From the NCBI RefSeq assembly GCF_000423485.1, contig NZ_AUIB01000006.1, positions 62,001 through 126,000 of the forward strand: a stretch of 64,000 bases of DNA, in the 5' to 3' direction. The notes below the pieces were generated by a model that did not search any database, was not told the DNA's origin, and was given only the letters and a program-made list of their open reading frames with translations. The stretch's first letter is position 1, and each line of letters starts with the position of its first letter. This stretch comes from Propionimicrobium lymphophilum DSM 4903. GTDB taxonomy: Bacteria > Actinomycetota > Actinomycetes > Propionibacteriales > Propionibacteriaceae. Shown piece after piece: positions 4,698-11,622 of the stretch. The translations under genes were made by a program, and so were the position numbers.

Positions 4698-5520
4698 GTT
4701 CTTCGGCGTTCACCAAGGGGTTCTGCGTATGGAGATTCGAGGATCGAGGCGATCCAGGATCTCCTTTTTCTGAGCAATGTTATGCACAGGCGGGCAATAG
4801 TGAGGTTGTCTACTGTTCCATTGTTATTTGCAATCATGGGGATTGGCCAGAATACTTAAAACTTCCCGCCTGTTCCAAACGCTTATTTAGGACTAATAGA
4901 GGGATCTTAATTTTTCCGCTCAGCGCTTATTTATTGGACATTTTTTATCAATATAAAAAGAAACAAGGTATTCACCGTCGACAGCATAAGGCTGTATTTA
5001 TTCGTACATTCTTGTCCGTTTTATTTAAAGAGATTTCTTGAAGAAAGTAACTAACCATAGACAACCACTTAACTGTTATCCACAGGCTCTATTCCGAATC
5101 ATGGATTTAAAAGTTGGGCGGGCTGCTGTTTCCGCGATTCCTCATGGGGCAAAAGCACTTAATAAAAAATGACCAGGTCAGATGACCTGGTCATTGCTAT
5201 CTGGTTATCTAGTTGCTGAAGATGATACGGGTACGTGTTGGCTCTCTGGGCACGTTGTGTCTGTTTCTGCTGGTTATGGCGGCTTTTGATTTCGTTGCAG
5301 TGTTGCTCGGCGATCTCCACGGGTCATTAACTGGCCGTGGACTGTCTGTTGTGCTCGCGCGTGTCCGCTTTGGGAACTGGGATGAGTGTGCTTGCTCGGG
5401 TTACGCGTAAAGGTTGTTTCATTTGCGCTTATGGAGCGTGCTCGTCCTAGGAGAGTATCGCGTTAGATAAGATGGAGGTGTGCGGCGTGCGCGTTGGGCG
5501 CTTGAGCGTGGAGGTGTGTG
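4698..5520. other. 823-bp AT-rich gap between the HEPN-like gene and hsdR
   Basis: No convincing gene is visible. About 4840-5100 is clearly richer in A+T than the flanks, as expected for acquired DNA or a promoter region. A perfect hairpin lies at 5169-5194 (separate entry). A short TTG-started hydrophobic frame at 5213-5410 has no ribosome-binding site and is not called. The promoter of the hsd operon is presumably in 5195-5500, but I cannot place its boxes. Confidence 0.6.
5169..5194 (-). terminator. Perfect 12-bp hairpin, terminator-like on the minus strand
   Basis: ATGACCAGGTCA and its exact reverse complement are separated by 2 nt. Read on the minus strand, the stem is followed by TTTTTTATT, the form of an intrinsic terminator. 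No minus-strand gene is present upstream of it (at higher coordinates), so it is either a relic of a lost gene or an operator-like palindrome. Confidence 0.55.
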
Positions 5521-7902
5521 ATGGCGCGTCTTACTGAGGAAGATGTGAAGCAGCGCCTTATTACTCCTGCGATTGTTGATGGTGCGGGTTGGGCTCGTGA
5601 ACAGTTGTTTATGGAGGCGTTCACTGACGGCCAGATTATTGTGCAGGGCAGGTCTACTCGTCGCGGTAAGCGCGGTAAAGCTGATTATGTTTTGAAAACT
5701 TCCATAGGTAAGGCCTTAGCCGTTGTTGAGGCTAAGGATGCGTCTCACTCGGTGGGTGCTGGTTTGCAGCAGGCGATGGGGTATGCGGTGAAGCTAGACG
5801 CCCCGTTTGCGTATTCGTCTAACGGTTACGGGTTTGTGGAGCATGACTTTCTCACCGGTGCAGAGCGGGAAATAACAATGGATGAGTTCCCGACTGAAAT
5901 TCAGCTTTGGCACCGTTATGTGGGAGCTAAGCGGCTCGATTCGCATGCTCAGCAGGTTGTGTGTGAGCCGTATTATTTTGATGCTTTCTCAGGTAAAGCT
6001 CCGCGTTATTATCAGCAGGTTGCTGTTGATCGGACGGTGGAGCGGGTAGCGCAAGGCGATAAGCGCTTGCTGCTGGTGATGGCTACTGGCACAGGGAAGA
6101 CTTTCACGGCGTTTCAGATTATTTGGCGCTTACTGGAAGCGGGCGCTGTGAAACGGGTGTTGTATTTAGCGGATCGTAATGTGTTGTTGGATCAGACGAT
6201 TTCGCGTGATTTTGCTCCGTTTGGTAATCGTGTGGTGAAGGTTGCTCACCGCAGCCTGGATTCTTCGCGTGAAGTGTATTTGAGTTTGTATCACCAGCTT
6301 GCCGGGGATGAGGGGTAGGAGCCTTTCCGTCAGTTTAAGCCTGAGTTTTTTGATTTGGTGGTGGTTGATGAGTGTCACCGGGGTTCTGCTAGGGATGAGT
6401 CTAGGTGGCGTAGGGTGCTGGATTATTTTTCCGGCGCTATTCATCTTGGGATGACGGCTACCCCGAAGGAGACTAAAGAGGTCTCGAATATTACGTATTT
6501 TGGTGACCCGATTTATACGTATTCGCTTCGTGAGGGTATTGAGGACGGGTTCCTTGCCCCGTATAAGGTGCTTCGAGTTGGTATCGATATTGATCTTGAG
6601 GGCTGGCGGCCCTATGAGGGTCAGCGTGATGTGGATGGTCAGCTGGTAGAGGATAGAGAATATAACGTTAAAGATTATGACCGGGATTTGGTGATTGATG
6701 ACCGTACTCGGCTGGTCGCTAAGTATGTGGCGGCGTGGTTGAAGAAGAACGGTCAAGACTCGAAAACTATTGTGTTTTGTGTTGATATCGACCATGCGGA
6801 GAGGATGCGTCAGGCATTAGCGAATGAGTGTCTTGAGCAGGTGGTGGAAGATTATCGCTATGTGATGCGTATCACCGGTGATGACGCTGAGGGTAAGGCT
6901 CAGTTGGATAATTTCGCTGACCCAAGCGAGAAGTATCCCACGATTGTGACGACCTCGAAGTTGTTGACGACCGGGGTTGATGTGCGAACTTGCAAATTGA
7001 TTGTGTTGGAATCGAATATTCAGTCGATGACCGAGTTTAAGCAGATTATTGGTCGGGGAACCAGGCTTGCGCCTGAGTATGGCAAAGAGTTCTTCACGAT
7101 CATGGATTTCCGGGGTTCTACCCGTCTGTTCGCTGATCCTGATTTCGATGGGGAACCTGCCGTTATCAATACCGTCACGGCAAAGCCCGGCGATGAGCCG
7201 ATCATTCCAGACGATGATGAAAATACCGATGGACCACAAGATGGTGGCGATGAGCCACCGGCAGTAAGCATCCCTGTAGGTACTACCTGTGGCGGTAGTG
7301 GCAAGCCCGTCCAGCCACCTGGGCCGAGACGCAAGGTTCGGGTATGCGGTGTGGAGGTGGCGTTGCTTAATGAGCGGGTGCAGTTCATTGATCCACAAAC
7401 CGGCAAGTTGGTTAATGAGTCGGTTACTGATTTTTCTCGTAAAAGCCTGCTTGGCCAGTATGCGACGTTGGAGGATTTTCTGCACGGCTGGTTATCGGCT
7501 GACCGTAAGGCAGCGTTGGCTGAGGAACTGAAAGATAGCGGGGTGTTTTTGGATGCACTGCGGGAAGAGGCAGGCGCTATTGGGGCCGAGTTGGACGATT
7601 TTGATTTGATCTTGCATGTGGCCTACGACAAGCCACCGCTTACTCGCGGCGAGCGAGTGAAGAATGTGCAAAAGAGAGGCTACCTGCATCGCTATTCTGG
7701 CGAATGCGTGAAAGTACTGCAGGCTCTGCTCGACAAGTACGCCACGATAGGAATCAGCCAGGTTGAAGATATTCGGGTGCTAGCTAATGACCCGTTTATT
7801 CATCTTGGCTCACCTGCGAAAATCATTAGCTTGTTTGGTGGGAAAACGAGCTATCAACAGGCCGTCCAAGAACTCATCAACCAGTTGTATGCAACGTCCT
7901 AA
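5521..7902 (+). pseudogene. hsdR: Type I restriction endonuclease subunit R (EcoEI-like) with in-frame TAG
   Basis: Motor and nuclease subunit of a type I restriction enzyme, 793 codon positions. The N-terminal PD-(D/E)xK nuclease shows Asp55, Glu70 and Lys72 (ADY...VVEAK). Walker A is ATGTGKT around residues 188-194. The DECH box is at 282-285, followed by GMTATPKE. Motifs V-VI (TTGVDV, QIIGRGTRL) and an EcoEI-type C-terminal domain follow. A TAG at 6316-6318 (codon 266) interrupts the frame between Walker A and DECH. The frame resumes with no shift and all downstream motifs are conserved, so the change is a single recent nonsense mutation or a read error. The ATG at 5521 is preferred over GTG 5518 because GTGGAGG lies 7 nt upstream. 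Without readthrough neither fragment can cut DNA. Confidence 0.9.
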
Positions 7903-7927: not shown

Positions 7928-9406
7928 ATGGGTCTTAATTCATTCATCTCTACTTCGCGTAACATAATGCGCGGGGATGCGGGTATTAATGGTGACGCGC
8001 AACGTATCGAGCAGCTCACTTGGATGCTGTTTTTGAAGGTTTATGACGCGAAAGAACAAGACTGGGCCGCGCTAGAAGATAACTACACCTCAATTATCCC
8101 CGCTCATCTGCAGTGGGGAGCGTGGGCTGTTGACCACAAAGACGGGCAGGCGTTGACTAGTGACAAGCTACTTGATTTTGTCAACAACGAGCTATTCCCA
8201 ACGCTTAAAACCCTGCCCATCACGCCTAAAACCCCTATCCGTAAGGCGATTGTTCGGTCGGTGTTTGATGATGCTAACCAGTACATGAAAGATGGGGTGC
8301 TTATCCGCCAACTGGTCAACCTGGTTGATTCCATTAACTTCGATGACTACAACGAGAGTCACTCGTTCGGTGAGATTTATGAGACCCTGCTCAAAGACCT
8401 GCAAAGCGCAGGCAGCAGTGGCGAGTTCTACACCCCGCGGGCTGTCACCGATTTCATGGTTAAAGCCACCAACCCCACGCTGGATGACACTATCGCTGAT
8501 TTCGCGGCAGGCACAGGCGGGTTCCTCACTTCAAGCCTCAAACACCTAGAAACCCAGATCAAAACCGTTGCGGATCGGCAGCGCTACAACGAGATTGTGT
8601 TTGGTATTGAGAAGAAACCAATGCCGTATCTGCTGGGGCTTACTAATCTGCTTTTGCATGATGTGTCCTCACCGAATTTCTATCACGGTAATTCGCTGAC
8701 CAGGAATGTGCGCGAATATAAAGACCACGAGAAGTTCTCGCTGATCCTTATGAATCCGCCATACGGGGGAACCGAACAGAAAACTATTCAAACGAACTTT
8801 CCTGCCGCGCTGCGTTCCTCAGAAACCGCTGACTTGTTCATCGCGCTCATCATGTACCGGCTGAAAGCTGGTGGGCGGGCCGCCGTCGTGCTTCCAGACG
8901 GGCTCCTGTTTGGCAGTGACCGGGCTAAAACCGAGATCAAAAAGAAACTCTTAAACGAGTTCAATCTCCACACCATCATCCGGCTACCCGGATCGGTGTT
9001 TTCCCCATACACCTCGATTGCTACGAACCTTTTATTCTTCGATAATACCAAGGCGACTGAGAAAACCTGGTTCTACCGGGTAGACCTACCTGAAGGCTAC
9101 AAAGCATTCAGCAAAACCCGGCCCATGCAACTCGCTCATTTCGACGAGTGCTGGCAGTGGTGGAACAACCGCACCGAAATCAAAGACATCAACGGTGAAA
9201 CCTACAAGGCACGTGCCTTCAGCGCACAAGGACTAGCCGATTTGGGCTACAACCTTGACCAATGCGGCTACCCACAAGAAACCGAAGAAATCCTCACCCC
9301 TGAAGAAACCATCACCCGCTATAAAAAACGCCGCGCCGAACTAGACAAGGCTATAGATGAGCAAATCGCACTCATAGAACAAATCCTGGCCGAGGCAAAA
9401 GCATGA
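7928..9406 (+). CDS. hsdM: Type I restriction-modification DNA methyltransferase subunit M
   Basis: Adenine-N6 DNA methyltransferase that works with HsdS as M2S. The N-terminal HsdM helical domain (GDAQRIEQLTWMLFLKVYD) is followed by the AdoMet motif DFAAGTGGFL near residue 190 and the catalytic NPPYGG near residue 276. Length is 492 residues, full size, with no interruption. It begins 25 nt after the hsdR stop and overlaps hsdS by the four bases ATGA, so translation of the specificity subunit is probably coupled. The C-terminal tail is coiled-coil-like (about residues 460-490). Codon choice shifts from T-ending codons in hsdR to C-ending codons here, hinting at a mosaic origin. Confidence 0.95.
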   Translation: MGLNSFISTSRNIMRGDAGINGDAQRIEQLTWMLFLKVYDAKEQDWAALEDNYTSIIPAHLQWGAWAVDHKDGQALTSDKLLDFVNNELFPTLKTLPITPKTPIRKAIVRSVFDDANQYMKDGVLIRQLVNLVDSINFDDYNESHSFGEIYETLLKDLQSAGSSGEFYTPRAVTDFMVKATNPTLDDTIADFAAGTGGFLTSSLKHLETQIKTVADRQRYNEIVFGIEKKPMPYLLGLTNLLLHDVSSPNFYHGNSLTRNVREYKDHEKFSLILMNPPYGGTEQKTIQTNFPAALRSSETADLFIALIMYRLKAGGRAAVVLPDGLLFGSDRAKTEIKKKLLNEFNLHTIIRLPGSVFSPYTSIATNLLFFDNTKATEKTWFYRVDLPEGYKAFSKTRPMQLAHFDECWQWWNNRTEIKDINGETYKARAFSAQGLADLGYNLDQCGYPQETEEILTPEETITRYKKRRAELDKAIDEQIALIEQILAEAKA

Positions 9407-10197
9407 TCGCAGAAAAACTCCGCCAAGCTGTGCTCCAAGCTGCTGTAAGCGGCCAGCTCACCGATCAACGCGAAGAAGACGGCACCGCAGCAGAATTACT
9501 CGAAAAAATCGCTACCGAACGTAACGCCTTAGTCAAGGCGGGCAAACTCAAAAAACAGAAGCCCCTGCCAGTCATTGCTGATTCAGAGAAGCGATTTGGT
9601 ATACCAAACACTTGGTCTTGGGCACGGTTGTCAGATCTATTCGGGCTGATACGTGGAATTACGTTCCCAAGCTCGGAGAAATCTTCGATTTTTCTTCCTG
9701 GGTCAGAACGTTGCCTGACTACTGGGTCGGTTCAGCGGGAATACTCGGAGCTGGCAGATGTTTTTGTGGGCTCAAAATATTTAAAACGCGATGATCTTCT
9801 GCTCAGGCAGGGCGACATAGTCATATCTACCGCTAATTCTAGAGCTCTAGTGGGGAAATCAATATTTTGGAATGAAGAAGAACGGGCAACCTTCGGTGGA
9901 TTCTTAACAGTAGCTAGAGCATATTCGCCGCTCGTGTTTTCTCTTAGATTTGGCCATTATGTTATACGCCAGCTCTTTATTTCTGGGGTATTTACAAACA
10001 ATGCAACTCAAACAACCAATATTGCGAATTTGAGCAATAAGGTGCTGAGCCTAATCACAGTTCCGGTACCTCCACGTGCCGAACAAGATCGAATAGTAGC
10101 TAAACTCGATCAGGCCATGCCGCTCATTGATCGTCTTGCTGAACTCGAGAGAGAGAGAGAGAGAAGATCTAGACCGCAAGCTCGTCATGGAGTTTGA
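9403..10197 (+). CDS. hsdS: Type I specificity subunit S, N-terminal half in the frame-off state
   Basis: DNA-recognition subunit of the type I system. The 264 residues comprise an N-terminal conserved helix (EKLRQAVLQAAVSGQL), the first target-recognition domain (about 65-215) and the central conserved region with PVPPRAEQDRIVAKLD. The frame then enters a (GA)9 tract encoding alternating Glu-Arg, leaves the correct frame and ends 12 codons later at TGA 10195. Full-length HsdS proteins have two recognition domains. The missing half lies directly downstream in the +1 frame (10187-10903). The truncated form keeps one recognition domain plus the dimerising helix, so it might act as a half-subunit that pairs with itself; that is inference from the NgoAV precedent. 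Confidence 0.85.
   Translation: MIAEKLRQAVLQAAVSGQLTDQREEDGTAAELLEKIATERNALVKAGKLKKQKPLPVIADSEKRFGIPNTWSWARLSDLFGLIRGITFPSSEKSSIFLPGSERCLTTGSVQREYSELADVFVGSKYLKRDDLLLRQGDIVISTANSRALVGKSIFWNEEERATFGGFLTVARAYSPLVFSLRFGHYVIRQLFISGVFTNNATQTTNIANLSNKVLSLITVPVPPRAEQDRIVAKLDQAMPLIDRLAELERERERRSRPQARHGV
10147..10164 (+). repeat. (GA)9 dinucleotide tract inside hsdS, candidate phase-variation switch
   Basis: Nine uninterrupted GA units lie in the helix between the two recognition halves of HsdS. The upstream frame needs two extra bases, or four fewer, to join the downstream frame. Ten or seven units therefore give one continuous HsdS of about 500 residues, and nine units (here) or eight give truncation. 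Each change of three units would also add or remove an Arg-Glu pair in the spacer helix. Confidence 0.85.
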
Positions 10198-10903
10198 GAG
10201 TATCTTGCCGTCGTTTATCATCAATCAACCCGGCACTCATGAATTATCTGGTGAGTATGCGTGGGATGACGGGAGCATTGAGCGCAGTAGAGGTTCTATT
10301 TCGCGTCGGATGCAGCGGTTGCGACGAGTAGCAGTGGATTCTGAATCAGCGTGGAGTAGATCGCCCTGGCCGTTGGTACCCTTAGGGTCGTTGTGCGTGC
10401 ATATAGCTTCTGGCAGTACTCCCAAGGGTGGCAAAGCGGTCTACCAAGATAAGGGTGTTATCTTTCTCCGCTCTCAGAATGTTCACAATGATGGCCTGCG
10501 ACTTGAAGGCGTTGCGAGGATCTCACCGGCTTTGCATGAAGGTAAAAAGAATAGCCACGTACGTCCACTTGATGTACTGCTTAATATTACGGGAGCTTCA
10601 ATTGGGCGTTCTGCGGTTGTACCGCAAGATTTTGAGTCGGCTAACATTAATCAGCACATATTGATTTTGCGTCTTGAAGATAGCCGTCTATCAGAATATC
10701 TACACCAGATTTTAATTGCTCACCCCACCTATCAAGACATTATGCGTCTTCAGAGTGGTTCGACGAAGGAAGGCCTGAGCGGAGAGAAAGCCGCTACTTT
10801 AGCTATTCCGATGCCGCCAGAATCTCGAAGGCGCAAATTGGTAGATTTGCTCGAGACTCTAGCTAGAAGTCTTTTGGCTTTGCGATCTTTTGTCTCTAAT
10901 TAG
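10187..10903 (+). pseudogene. hsdS: Type I specificity subunit S, C-terminal half (out of frame with the first half)
   Basis: This frame continues HsdS after the GA tract: EDLDRKLVMEFE, then the second target-recognition domain (WPLVPLGSLCVHIASGSTP, GVIFLRSQNV, NITGASIGRSAVV) and a terminal conserved region (AIPMPPESRRRKLVDLLE). It is uninterrupted to TAA-like stop TAG at 10901. The only nearby ATG, at 10187, precedes the stop of the first half by 6 nt, so reinitiation by terminating ribosomes could produce a separate 238-residue half-subunit; there is no independent ribosome-binding site. The open frame itself extends upstream through the GA tract to about 10127. I treat it as the second exon-like half of one phase-variable gene rather than as dead sequence. 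Confidence 0.8.
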
Positions 10904-11350: not shown

Positions 11351-11549
11351 CTAAGAATCTCCTCCTGCGGCGCTACCTAAAAAAGCCAGGTTTAGTGTGT
11401 CGGTTTTAATGGTCAGCCTGCTAATTTTGTTAACGTTTGCTGCTTAAAAAGCTTTAATGCATTTCCTTAACGCGGTGAGCCCCTCAGACTCGAGTCCCCT
11501 GCGTTAATTTGAGTGGGGCGAAATGTTTTGTTTCTGCGACCTACTCGGG
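11351..11549. other. Intergenic stretch between the island and tRNA-Ala
   Basis: No gene is visible. Bases 11480-11515 contain CAGACTCGAGTCCCCTGCGTTAATTT, which loosely resembles the T-arm-containing debris near 3745-3780 at the other edge of the island. The match is too poor to call an attachment repeat. Confidence 0.4.
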
Positions 11550-11622
11550 TGGAGCTAGGGGGATTCGAACCCCCGGCCTTCTCATTGCGAACGAGACGCG
11601 CTACCAACTGCGCCATAGCCCC
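11550..11622 (-). tRNA. tRNA-Ala, anticodon CGC
   Basis: A 73-nt cloverleaf on the minus strand: acceptor GGGGCTA/TAGCTCC with one G-T pair, D-stem GCGC/GCGC, anticodon stem TCTCG/TGAGA with loop TTCGCAA (anticodon CGC), and T-stem GGGGG/CCCCC around TTCGAAT. The discriminator is A and CCA is not encoded. Its 3' end faces the accessory island, the usual orientation for tRNA-targeted integration. Confidence 0.95.

What the first reader, a model, noticed from the sequence alone, without database searches (positions are those of the whole stretch)
9403..10903. Phase-variable type I specificity subunit switched by a (GA)9 tract
The two halves of HsdS are intact in different frames and the switch point coincides exactly with nine perfect GA units at 10147-10164. 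Counting frames, 10 or 7 units join both recognition domains; 9 (present) or 8 truncate after the first domain. Slippage would therefore toggle full-length HsdS, and multiples of three units would also change the spacer helix by an Arg-Glu pair. Spacer-length changes in EcoR124-type HsdS are known to change the gap in the target sequence, and a tract-controlled HsdS exists in Neisseria (NgoAV). A GA-dinucleotide version combining on/off control with spacer tuning in an actinobacterium would be new to me.
Basis: partly seen in the sequence, partly recalled or inferred. Interest (0 to 1): 0.85.

Follow-up and report, generated by a model that had tools for sequence, protein, structure and literature searches.

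The report
Repeat-switched DNA-targeting subunit in actinobacteria
A run of GA repeats sits in the middle of the gene that tells a bacterial DNA-marking enzyme where to act, and because its length varies between related bacteria it probably flips that gene between a full and a half protein, a known kind of switch found here in a new group of bacteria.

Summary
Confirmed: hsdS (9403-10903) is split exactly at (GA)9, 10147-10164. Ten genomes of different species (Rothia, Boudabousia, seven unnamed members of Boudabousia's family, the window's) carry the same EcoAI-family system with a perfect GA tract at the same point of the central helix. Four with 7 units, and one with 8 and a different base context, encode full-length HsdS; four with 8 and the window with 9 are truncated. 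The ten form one HsdM clade (99/99) needing at least five state changes. In nine it is the genome's only (GA)6+ tract; the tenth has one more, in another methyltransferase gene. No GA tract was seen there in the more distant relatives examined. Slippage-driven phase variation is the best explanation, though no reads or methylomes could be checked. Spacer tuning is not supported: all five joined alleles have one helix length. The kind is known: NgoAV poly-G hsdS, MmyCI AG-repeat mod, dinucleotide repeats in Ca. Mycoplasma girerdii hsdS.

The parts
5518..7902 (+). hsdR, EcoAI/FtnUII family (type IB), interrupted by an in-frame TAG at 6316-6318, shortly before the DECH motif (motif recalled)
   Evidence: one open frame in 9 of 9 tract-bearing relatives
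7928..9406 (+). hsdM, intact (492 aa), N6 DNA methylase
9403..10197 (+). hsdS first half as now read: N-terminal conserved region, TRD1, first half of the central helix, then a 10-residue out-of-frame tail after the tract (264 aa)
   Evidence: AlphaFold2 mean pLDDT 89.5, pTM 0.86
10147..10164 (+). (GA)9 tract, the proposed slippage switch
10165..10903 (+). hsdS second half (rest of central helix, TRD2), open in the other frame
10170..10172 (+). TAG met one codon after the tract in the frame reached with 8 units; a TAG at this spot in one wrong frame is present in 10 of 10 tract-bearing genomes

Best explanation
This is an EcoAI-family (type IB) modification system whose specificity gene is phase-variable. 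Slipped-strand changes in a perfect GA tract, placed at the boundary of the two half-subunits in the middle of the central helix, alternately join TRD1 and TRD2 into one HsdS or end translation just after TRD1 and its helix. Shown: the tract, the frames, the unit-number differences between species, and conservation of the half that is not translated in the split state. Inferred: that slippage occurs within a population, and that the joined form makes an active methyltransferase with an asymmetric bipartite target. The split form gives either no type I methylation or a TRD1 homodimer with a palindromic target; I rate these about 60:40 for the window, whose two dimerisation helices are dissimilar. 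With hsdR interrupted in this isolate, switching here would change methylation only, not restriction.
For: (1) Same tract at the same codon position in 10 genomes of different species: joined with 7 units (Rothia nasimurium, Boudabousia liubingyangii, G955, G954) and with 8 in a different base context (G897); split with 8 (G889, G833, G903, G963) and 9 (window). (2) The ten form one HsdM clade with 99/99 support; on the topology copied from that tree at least 5 changes of state, and 5 of unit number, are needed. Sisters differ in state: window/Rothia, G954/G963, and G889/G897 (the last pair both have 8 units and differ in the bases after the tract). (3) (GA)6+ occurs nowhere else in the draft genomes of 9 of the 10; in the tenth, G903, the only other one is in an EcoRI-family adenine methyltransferase gene. 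(4) In all 5 split alleles the second half remains open for 239-257 aa from the tract; over its first 85 alignment columns, in the 7 genomes compared, dN is below dS in all 21 pairs, and dN/dS of split-split pairs is about 0.25-0.38 in the 5 of 6 pairs where dS could be computed. (5) All tract arginines are AGA against 8 of 270 in hsdM. (6) A TAG one codon after the tract in one wrong frame in 10 of 10, through a CTA or TTA leucine codon in the open frame. (7) The tract encodes the middle of a 48-residue helix, 211-258, in the model of a joined HsdS (G955, mean pLDDT 91.8, pTM 0.68). (8) Precedents: NgoAV; MmyCI with AG12 off and AG10 on (PMC3498834, abstract and one section).
Against: No reads, no second isolate of any one species and no methylome were available, so slippage itself is unseen. 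The window's second half is atypical: its mid conserved region matches the N-terminal one at 6 of 45 positions at best, and helix D1 matches D2 at 6 of 32, against 24-33 of 45 and 10-18 of 32 in six of the eight genomes from Boudabousia's family (of the other two, G897 has 11 of 45 and 18 of 32, Boudabousia 7 and 5; Rothia 8 and 8). The interrupted hsdR would also fit a decaying locus in this isolate. In G897 hsdM and hsdS are on different contigs, so that pairing is inferred, and its joined state depends on the bases after the tract, not on unit number alone. Tract-bearing species are few (8 of 213 genomes of Boudabousia's family had an HsdM above threshold), and ten related loci are not ten independent events.
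Confidence: 0.87

Rival explanations
1. The locus is decaying in this isolate: hsdR carries a nonsense codon, hsdS a frameshift, and the split is a fixed mutation, not a switch.
For: In-frame TAG in hsdR of the window only (0 of 9 relatives); split hsdS; diverged second conserved region.
Against: The same site is split in four other genomes whose hsdR is open; hsdM and both hsdS halves are open; the tract is pure and kept across the clade. Decay of hsdR in this isolate may still be true alongside a working switch.
Confidence: 0.1
2. The unit number in the assembly is wrong and hsdS is joined in the real genome.
For: Short repeats can be miscounted in assemblies (general knowledge); reads were not available.
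Against: 18 bp is well within a short read (general knowledge); five assemblies are split and five joined. An error would not explain the tract itself.
Confidence: 0.06
3. Programmed ribosomal frameshifting on the GA/AGA run makes both products from one allele, so unit number matters less.
For: Rare AGA codons in the tract; both halves retained in split alleles.
Against: Across the ten genomes the second half lies in each of the three frames relative to the first, and half of the genomes are simply joined; I know of no slippery motif of this form.
Confidence: 0.04
4. The tract tunes target gap length (3 units = Arg-Glu pair in the spacer helix), as TAEL repeats do in EcoR124.
For: The tract lies in the central helix; one more TAEL repeat lengthens the gap by 1 bp in EcoR124 (PMC3874165, passages).
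Against: All 5 joined alleles encode the same helix length; no joined allele 3 units longer or shorter was found.
Confidence: 0.05

Closest known systems
NgoAV (Neisseria gonorrhoeae), type IC, poly-G tract in hsdS
   Same: Tract near the junction of the two halves of hsdS; unit number decides truncated or fused HsdS (PMC9577141, passages)
   Different: Homopolymer G, type IC, described in gonococci; there the truncated form is active with palindromic GCAN8TGC. Here GA, type IB, ten species, split form untested
MmyCI (Mycoplasma mycoides), type III mod with AG repeats
   Same: AG dinucleotide tract, stop immediately after the repeat in the off frame, AG12 off and AG10 on (PMC3498834, abstract and one section)
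   Different: Type III methyltransferase gene, not a specificity subunit
hsdS dinucleotide tandem repeats of Candidatus Mycoplasma girerdii
   Same: Dinucleotide repeats in type I hsdS, with length variants seen within a population (PMC5476646, passages)
   Different: Mollicute; two length-variable repeats per hsdS locus; consequences called difficult to predict; repeat unit not seen in the passages
Simple-repeat-bearing type I hsdS genes in REBASE (7.9% of hsdS)
   Same: Simple repeats in hsdS (figure as quoted in PMC7394358, passages)
   Different: Original survey (Atack 2020, FASEB J) not held, so whether it lists GA tracts in actinobacteria is unknown
EcoR124I/II TAEL spacer repeats
   Same: Repeat in the central region between the TRDs (PMC3874165, passages)
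   Different: In-frame 12-bp unit that changes gap length, not frame; type IC

Membership tests
EcoAI (type IB) family of type I systems | HsdR matches the EcoAI/FtnUII equivalog over its curated cut-off | tested here: met
   NF046051, 681 bits against cut-off 550, using the part after the TAG
EcoAI (type IB) family of type I systems | hsdR-hsdM-hsdS gene order with HsdM and two specificity domains in hsdS | tested here: met
   hsdS split by frame
Working restriction system in this isolate | Uninterrupted HsdR | tested here: not met
   in-frame TAG 6316-6318; not filed as a restricting system
Simple-sequence-repeat phase-variable gene | Perfect repeat in the ORF whose unit number sets the frame | tested here: met
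Simple-sequence-repeat phase-variable gene | Unit number differs between related genomes, both frames found | tested here: met
   5 joined, 5 split of 10, different species
Simple-sequence-repeat phase-variable gene | Length variants within one strain or culture | not testable with these tools
   no reads, one genome per species
Phasevarion (methyltransferase switching that alters gene expression) | Different methylome and transcriptome between states | not testable with these tools
   none
NgoAV-like specificity switch | Truncated HsdS is a complete half-unit able to fold and dimerise | tested here: inconclusive
   264-aa product is modelled confidently with N-terminal helices, TRD1 and helix 225-256; dimerisation not tested, D1/D2 similarity low in the window (6 of 32)
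NgoAV-like specificity switch | Truncated form methylates a palindromic target | not testable with these tools
   none; PMC3874165 (2013, passages) says such homodimers were reported for no family but IC
EcoR124-like gap tuning | Active alleles differing in helix length | tested here: not met
   all 5 joined alleles the same length

The most novel reading that the evidence does not exclude
A type IB specificity subunit that switches between two real specificities: joined (asymmetric bipartite target) and half (TRD1 homodimer, palindromic target). Homodimers of this sort were said in 2013 to be known only for type IC. The system would be one part of a wider set of GA-tract switches aimed at DNA-modification genes in Actinomycetaceae: of 22 tracts of 7 or more GA units returned from 213 genomes, 12 lie in such genes, of at least five kinds (this hsdS, other hsdS, type III mod, EcoRI-type methyltransferase, IIG-like methyltransferase).
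Probability: 0.27. Interest if true: 0.72.

Novelty: new member of a known kind. Interest (0 to 1): 0.52.

Why it matters
To my knowledge phase-variable DNA modification has been studied mainly in Gram-negative pathogens, streptococci and mycoplasmas. A repeat that is the only one of its kind in 9 of 10 draft genomes, kept at one codon of one gene across ten actinobacterial species with both states present, is a clean natural experiment. It makes two questions directly testable: whether the half-HsdS of a type IB enzyme is inactive or has a new target, and whether these actinobacteria run methylation-controlled gene switches. The recurrence of GA tracts in unrelated methyltransferase genes of the same bacterial family suggests repeated selection for switchable methylation.

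Tried and rejected
More distant relatives: one search found 155 HsdM relatives and kept the best 80. Of these 80, only the two actinobacterial ones with the tract (Rothia, Boudabousia) have a dinucleotide run of 5 or more units within 1.9 kb downstream of hsdM (11 of the 80 contigs end within 1 kb of hsdM). A motif scan read a segment in 64 of the 80; a few of its rows are false motif hits, and one locus (L056) seems read only by such a hit. The longest GA run was 7 in L010 and L011 and 2 or less in all other rows. G1208 (family of Rothia, HsdM 63%) has a 492-aa frame with an ordinary spacer and no tract.

Own genus and family: only the window's genome is held for its genus. Of 197 other family genomes 27 have an HsdS match, the best-scoring at 32% identity; of 390 other order genomes 8 have an HsdM above threshold, the best at 49%. 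Their hsdS were not examined for tracts. A stricter tract pattern with conserved flank found only the window among 394 class genomes. Plasmids and viral contigs gave HsdM relatives at up to about 60% identity; their hsdS were not examined either.

Independent translation of the second half: an in-frame ATG lies at 10187-10189 near the stop of the present product, but none is at that place in Boudabousia (read by eye); not pursued. Programmed frameshifting was considered and rated low.

Rows chosen: the tree has the 10 tract genomes, G1208, 16 of the 80 genome-contig loci and 3 of the 8 order hits; none was lost. dN/dS used 7 of the 10 genomes (window, Rothia and Boudabousia left out because their second halves align poorly) and the first 85 alignment columns. 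The pattern required a non-A base before the tract, so it missed at least G903's hsdS tract; '12 of 22' counts only tracts it returned. Of the 10 tracts outside modification genes, three in G952 were seen only with 1.5 kb or less of flank on each side. Paper searches were judged from listings; some searches listed 15 of 31, 10 of 139, 12 of 61 and 12 of 154 papers.
Full report
OBSERVATION. hsdS starts at 9403, overlapping the end of hsdM, and reads through (GA)9 at 10147-10164 to a stop at 10195-10197 (264 aa). The rest, with the second recognition domain, is open in the +1 frame to 10903. Both halves score as type I specificity domains. The 12-mer (GA)6 occurs 4 overlapping times, all inside this tract, against 0.02 expected in shuffles of the window, and nowhere else in the 2.04-Mb draft genome.

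THE SYSTEM. hsdM is intact. hsdR is interrupted by an in-frame TAG at 6316-6318, shortly before the DECH motif (motif recalled); the part after it scores 681 bits against a cut-off of 550 for the EcoAI/FtnUII family, which is type IB (PMC3874165, passages). Nine of nine tract-bearing relatives have hsdR as one open frame of 800 or more residues, and the stop falls at a position where they differ among themselves. So the window's isolate has most likely lost restriction while keeping a possible methyltransferase.

RELATIVES. A scan of the named species genomes with HsdM found 155 relatives and kept the best 80. The two closest, Rothia nasimurium (82%) and Boudabousia liubingyangii (77%), both have (GA)7 at the same place in a full-length HsdS. 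Boudabousia is in Actinomycetaceae and Rothia in Micrococcaceae. Of 213 genomes of Boudabousia's family, 8 (itself included) have an HsdM above threshold, at 67-78% identity; of 35 genomes of Rothia's genus only the first; of 395 drawn from Rothia's family one more, G1208, at 63%, without a tract. With the window that makes ten tract-bearing genomes. For G897 hsdM and hsdS lie at ends of different contigs and are paired by inference.

STATES. Joined: Rothia, Boudabousia, G955 and G954 with 7 units, and G897 with 8, where the bases after the tract differ so that 8 is the open register. Split: G889, G833, G903 and G963 with 8, and the window with 9. Every joined allele encodes the same ELERERE-x-LD stretch, so no length variation of the helix was seen. 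In every split allele the second half remains open (239-257 aa from the tract). In one of the wrong frames all ten meet TAG one codon after the tract, made by a CTA or TTA leucine codon and the base after it in the open frame; CTA plus TTA make up 74 of 530 leucine codons in the ten hsdM frames, and AGA 8 of 270 arginine codons (sums of the rows).

EVOLUTION. On an HsdM tree of 30 rows the ten form one group with 99/99 support, found in 98% of 200 bootstrap trees. Parsimony on the topology copied from that tree needs at least 5 changes of state. The sister pairs window/Rothia, G889/G897 and G954/G963 differ in state, the second of these by bases beside the tract at equal unit number. In the first 85 alignment columns of the second half dN is below dS in all 21 pairs of 7 genomes; the six split-split pairs give dN/dS of 0.22/0.58, 0.24/0.94, 0.32/1.26, 0.35/1.21, 0.40/1.12 and one with dS saturated. 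This points to recent or recurrent use of the joined protein in species whose sequenced isolate is split. The target domains themselves differ widely between the genomes.

STRUCTURE. In the AlphaFold2 model of the joined HsdS of G955 (mean pLDDT 91.8, pTM 0.68) the tract encodes the middle of one 48-residue helix, 211-258. The window's present product is modelled as a half-unit with a helix at 225-256 (pLDDT 89.5, pTM 0.86). Foldseek's best PDB match for both is the S subunit 1yf2 (E 4.9e-23 and 5.3e-11), with modest TM-scores by query length (0.37 and 0.57). TRD1 of the window is closest in PDB sequences to that of EcoKI (E 3.1e-17), whose N-terminal TRD reads AAC (PMC3874165, passages); that is a lead for its half-site, not a prediction.

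MECHANISM. Most likely: slippage changes unit number, and translation gives either full HsdS or a TRD1 half. The second step is open. For type IC enzymes a half S dimerises and reads a palindrome; a 2013 review says this was reported for no other family and links it to similarity between the two dimerisation helices (PMC3874165, passages). By best ungapped match those helices agree at 10-18 of 32 positions in seven of the ten genomes, but at 8 in Rothia, 6 in the window and 5 in Boudabousia. So a second specificity is plausible in those seven and less so in the window.

WIDER PATTERN. In the 213 genomes a search for (GA)7 preceded by a non-A base returned 22 tracts in 17 genomes. Seven are this hsdS (G903's is an eighth, missed by the pattern). 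Five more lie in other DNA-modification genes: another hsdS in G808 and in G945, both split at the tract; a type III mod in G851, split near its start; an EcoRI-family methyltransferase in G903, in frame; and a IIG-like methyltransferase in G858, in frame. The other ten were judged only roughly: an OmpA-family protein, some surface- or secreted-looking frames, and unassigned or non-coding DNA.

KNOWN OR NEW. Frame-switching of hsdS by a simple repeat is known (NgoAV). A survey quoted in PMC7394358 gives 7.9% of hsdS with simple repeats (passages). An AG tract with a stop right after it switches MmyCI mod. Dinucleotide repeats with length variants in hsdS are reported for Ca. Mycoplasma girerdii (passages). 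I saw no actinobacterial case in the listings of nine searches of the open library, some of them cut short, and the central survey was not readable here. I therefore file it as a new member of a known kind, with its type IB setting and clade-wide conservation as the new parts.

Noticed in passing
window 6316-6318: In-frame TAG in hsdR, absent from 9 of 9 relatives; restriction probably lost in this isolate.
   Followed up: yes
L169 5967-5986 (G903:C40): (GA)10 inside an EcoRI-family adenine methyltransferase gene, in frame; with the hsdS tract these are the only two (GA)6+ tracts of that draft genome.
   Followed up: partly
L199 5051-5078 (G945): (GA)14 between two halves of a different type I hsdS, split state.
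   Followed up: partly
L195 4549-4562 (G808): GA tract (read as TC on the coding strand) between two halves of another hsdS, split state.
   Followed up: partly
L196 3201-3224 (G851): (GA)12 near the start of a type III mod gene, split state.
   Followed up: partly
L197 5012-5031 (G858): TC10 on the coding strand inside a 1379-aa frame of a IIG/PglX-like methyltransferase.
   Followed up: partly
L202 2755-2770 and L200 3387-3402 (G952, G951): (GA)8 tracts at the start of a large surface-looking frame without a Pfam match and just upstream of an OmpA-family, lipoprotein-like frame; possible phase-variable surface genes.
   Followed up: no
window 11548-11622: tRNA-Ala gene shortly downstream of the system, a possible insertion point for a mobile R-M island.
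   Followed up: no
L001/L002 (G000:C1:301491-302597) and L003/L004 (G000:C14): The window's genome holds other hsdS-like genes in single open frames of 414 and 402 aa; they carry no (GA)6 tract.
   Followed up: no
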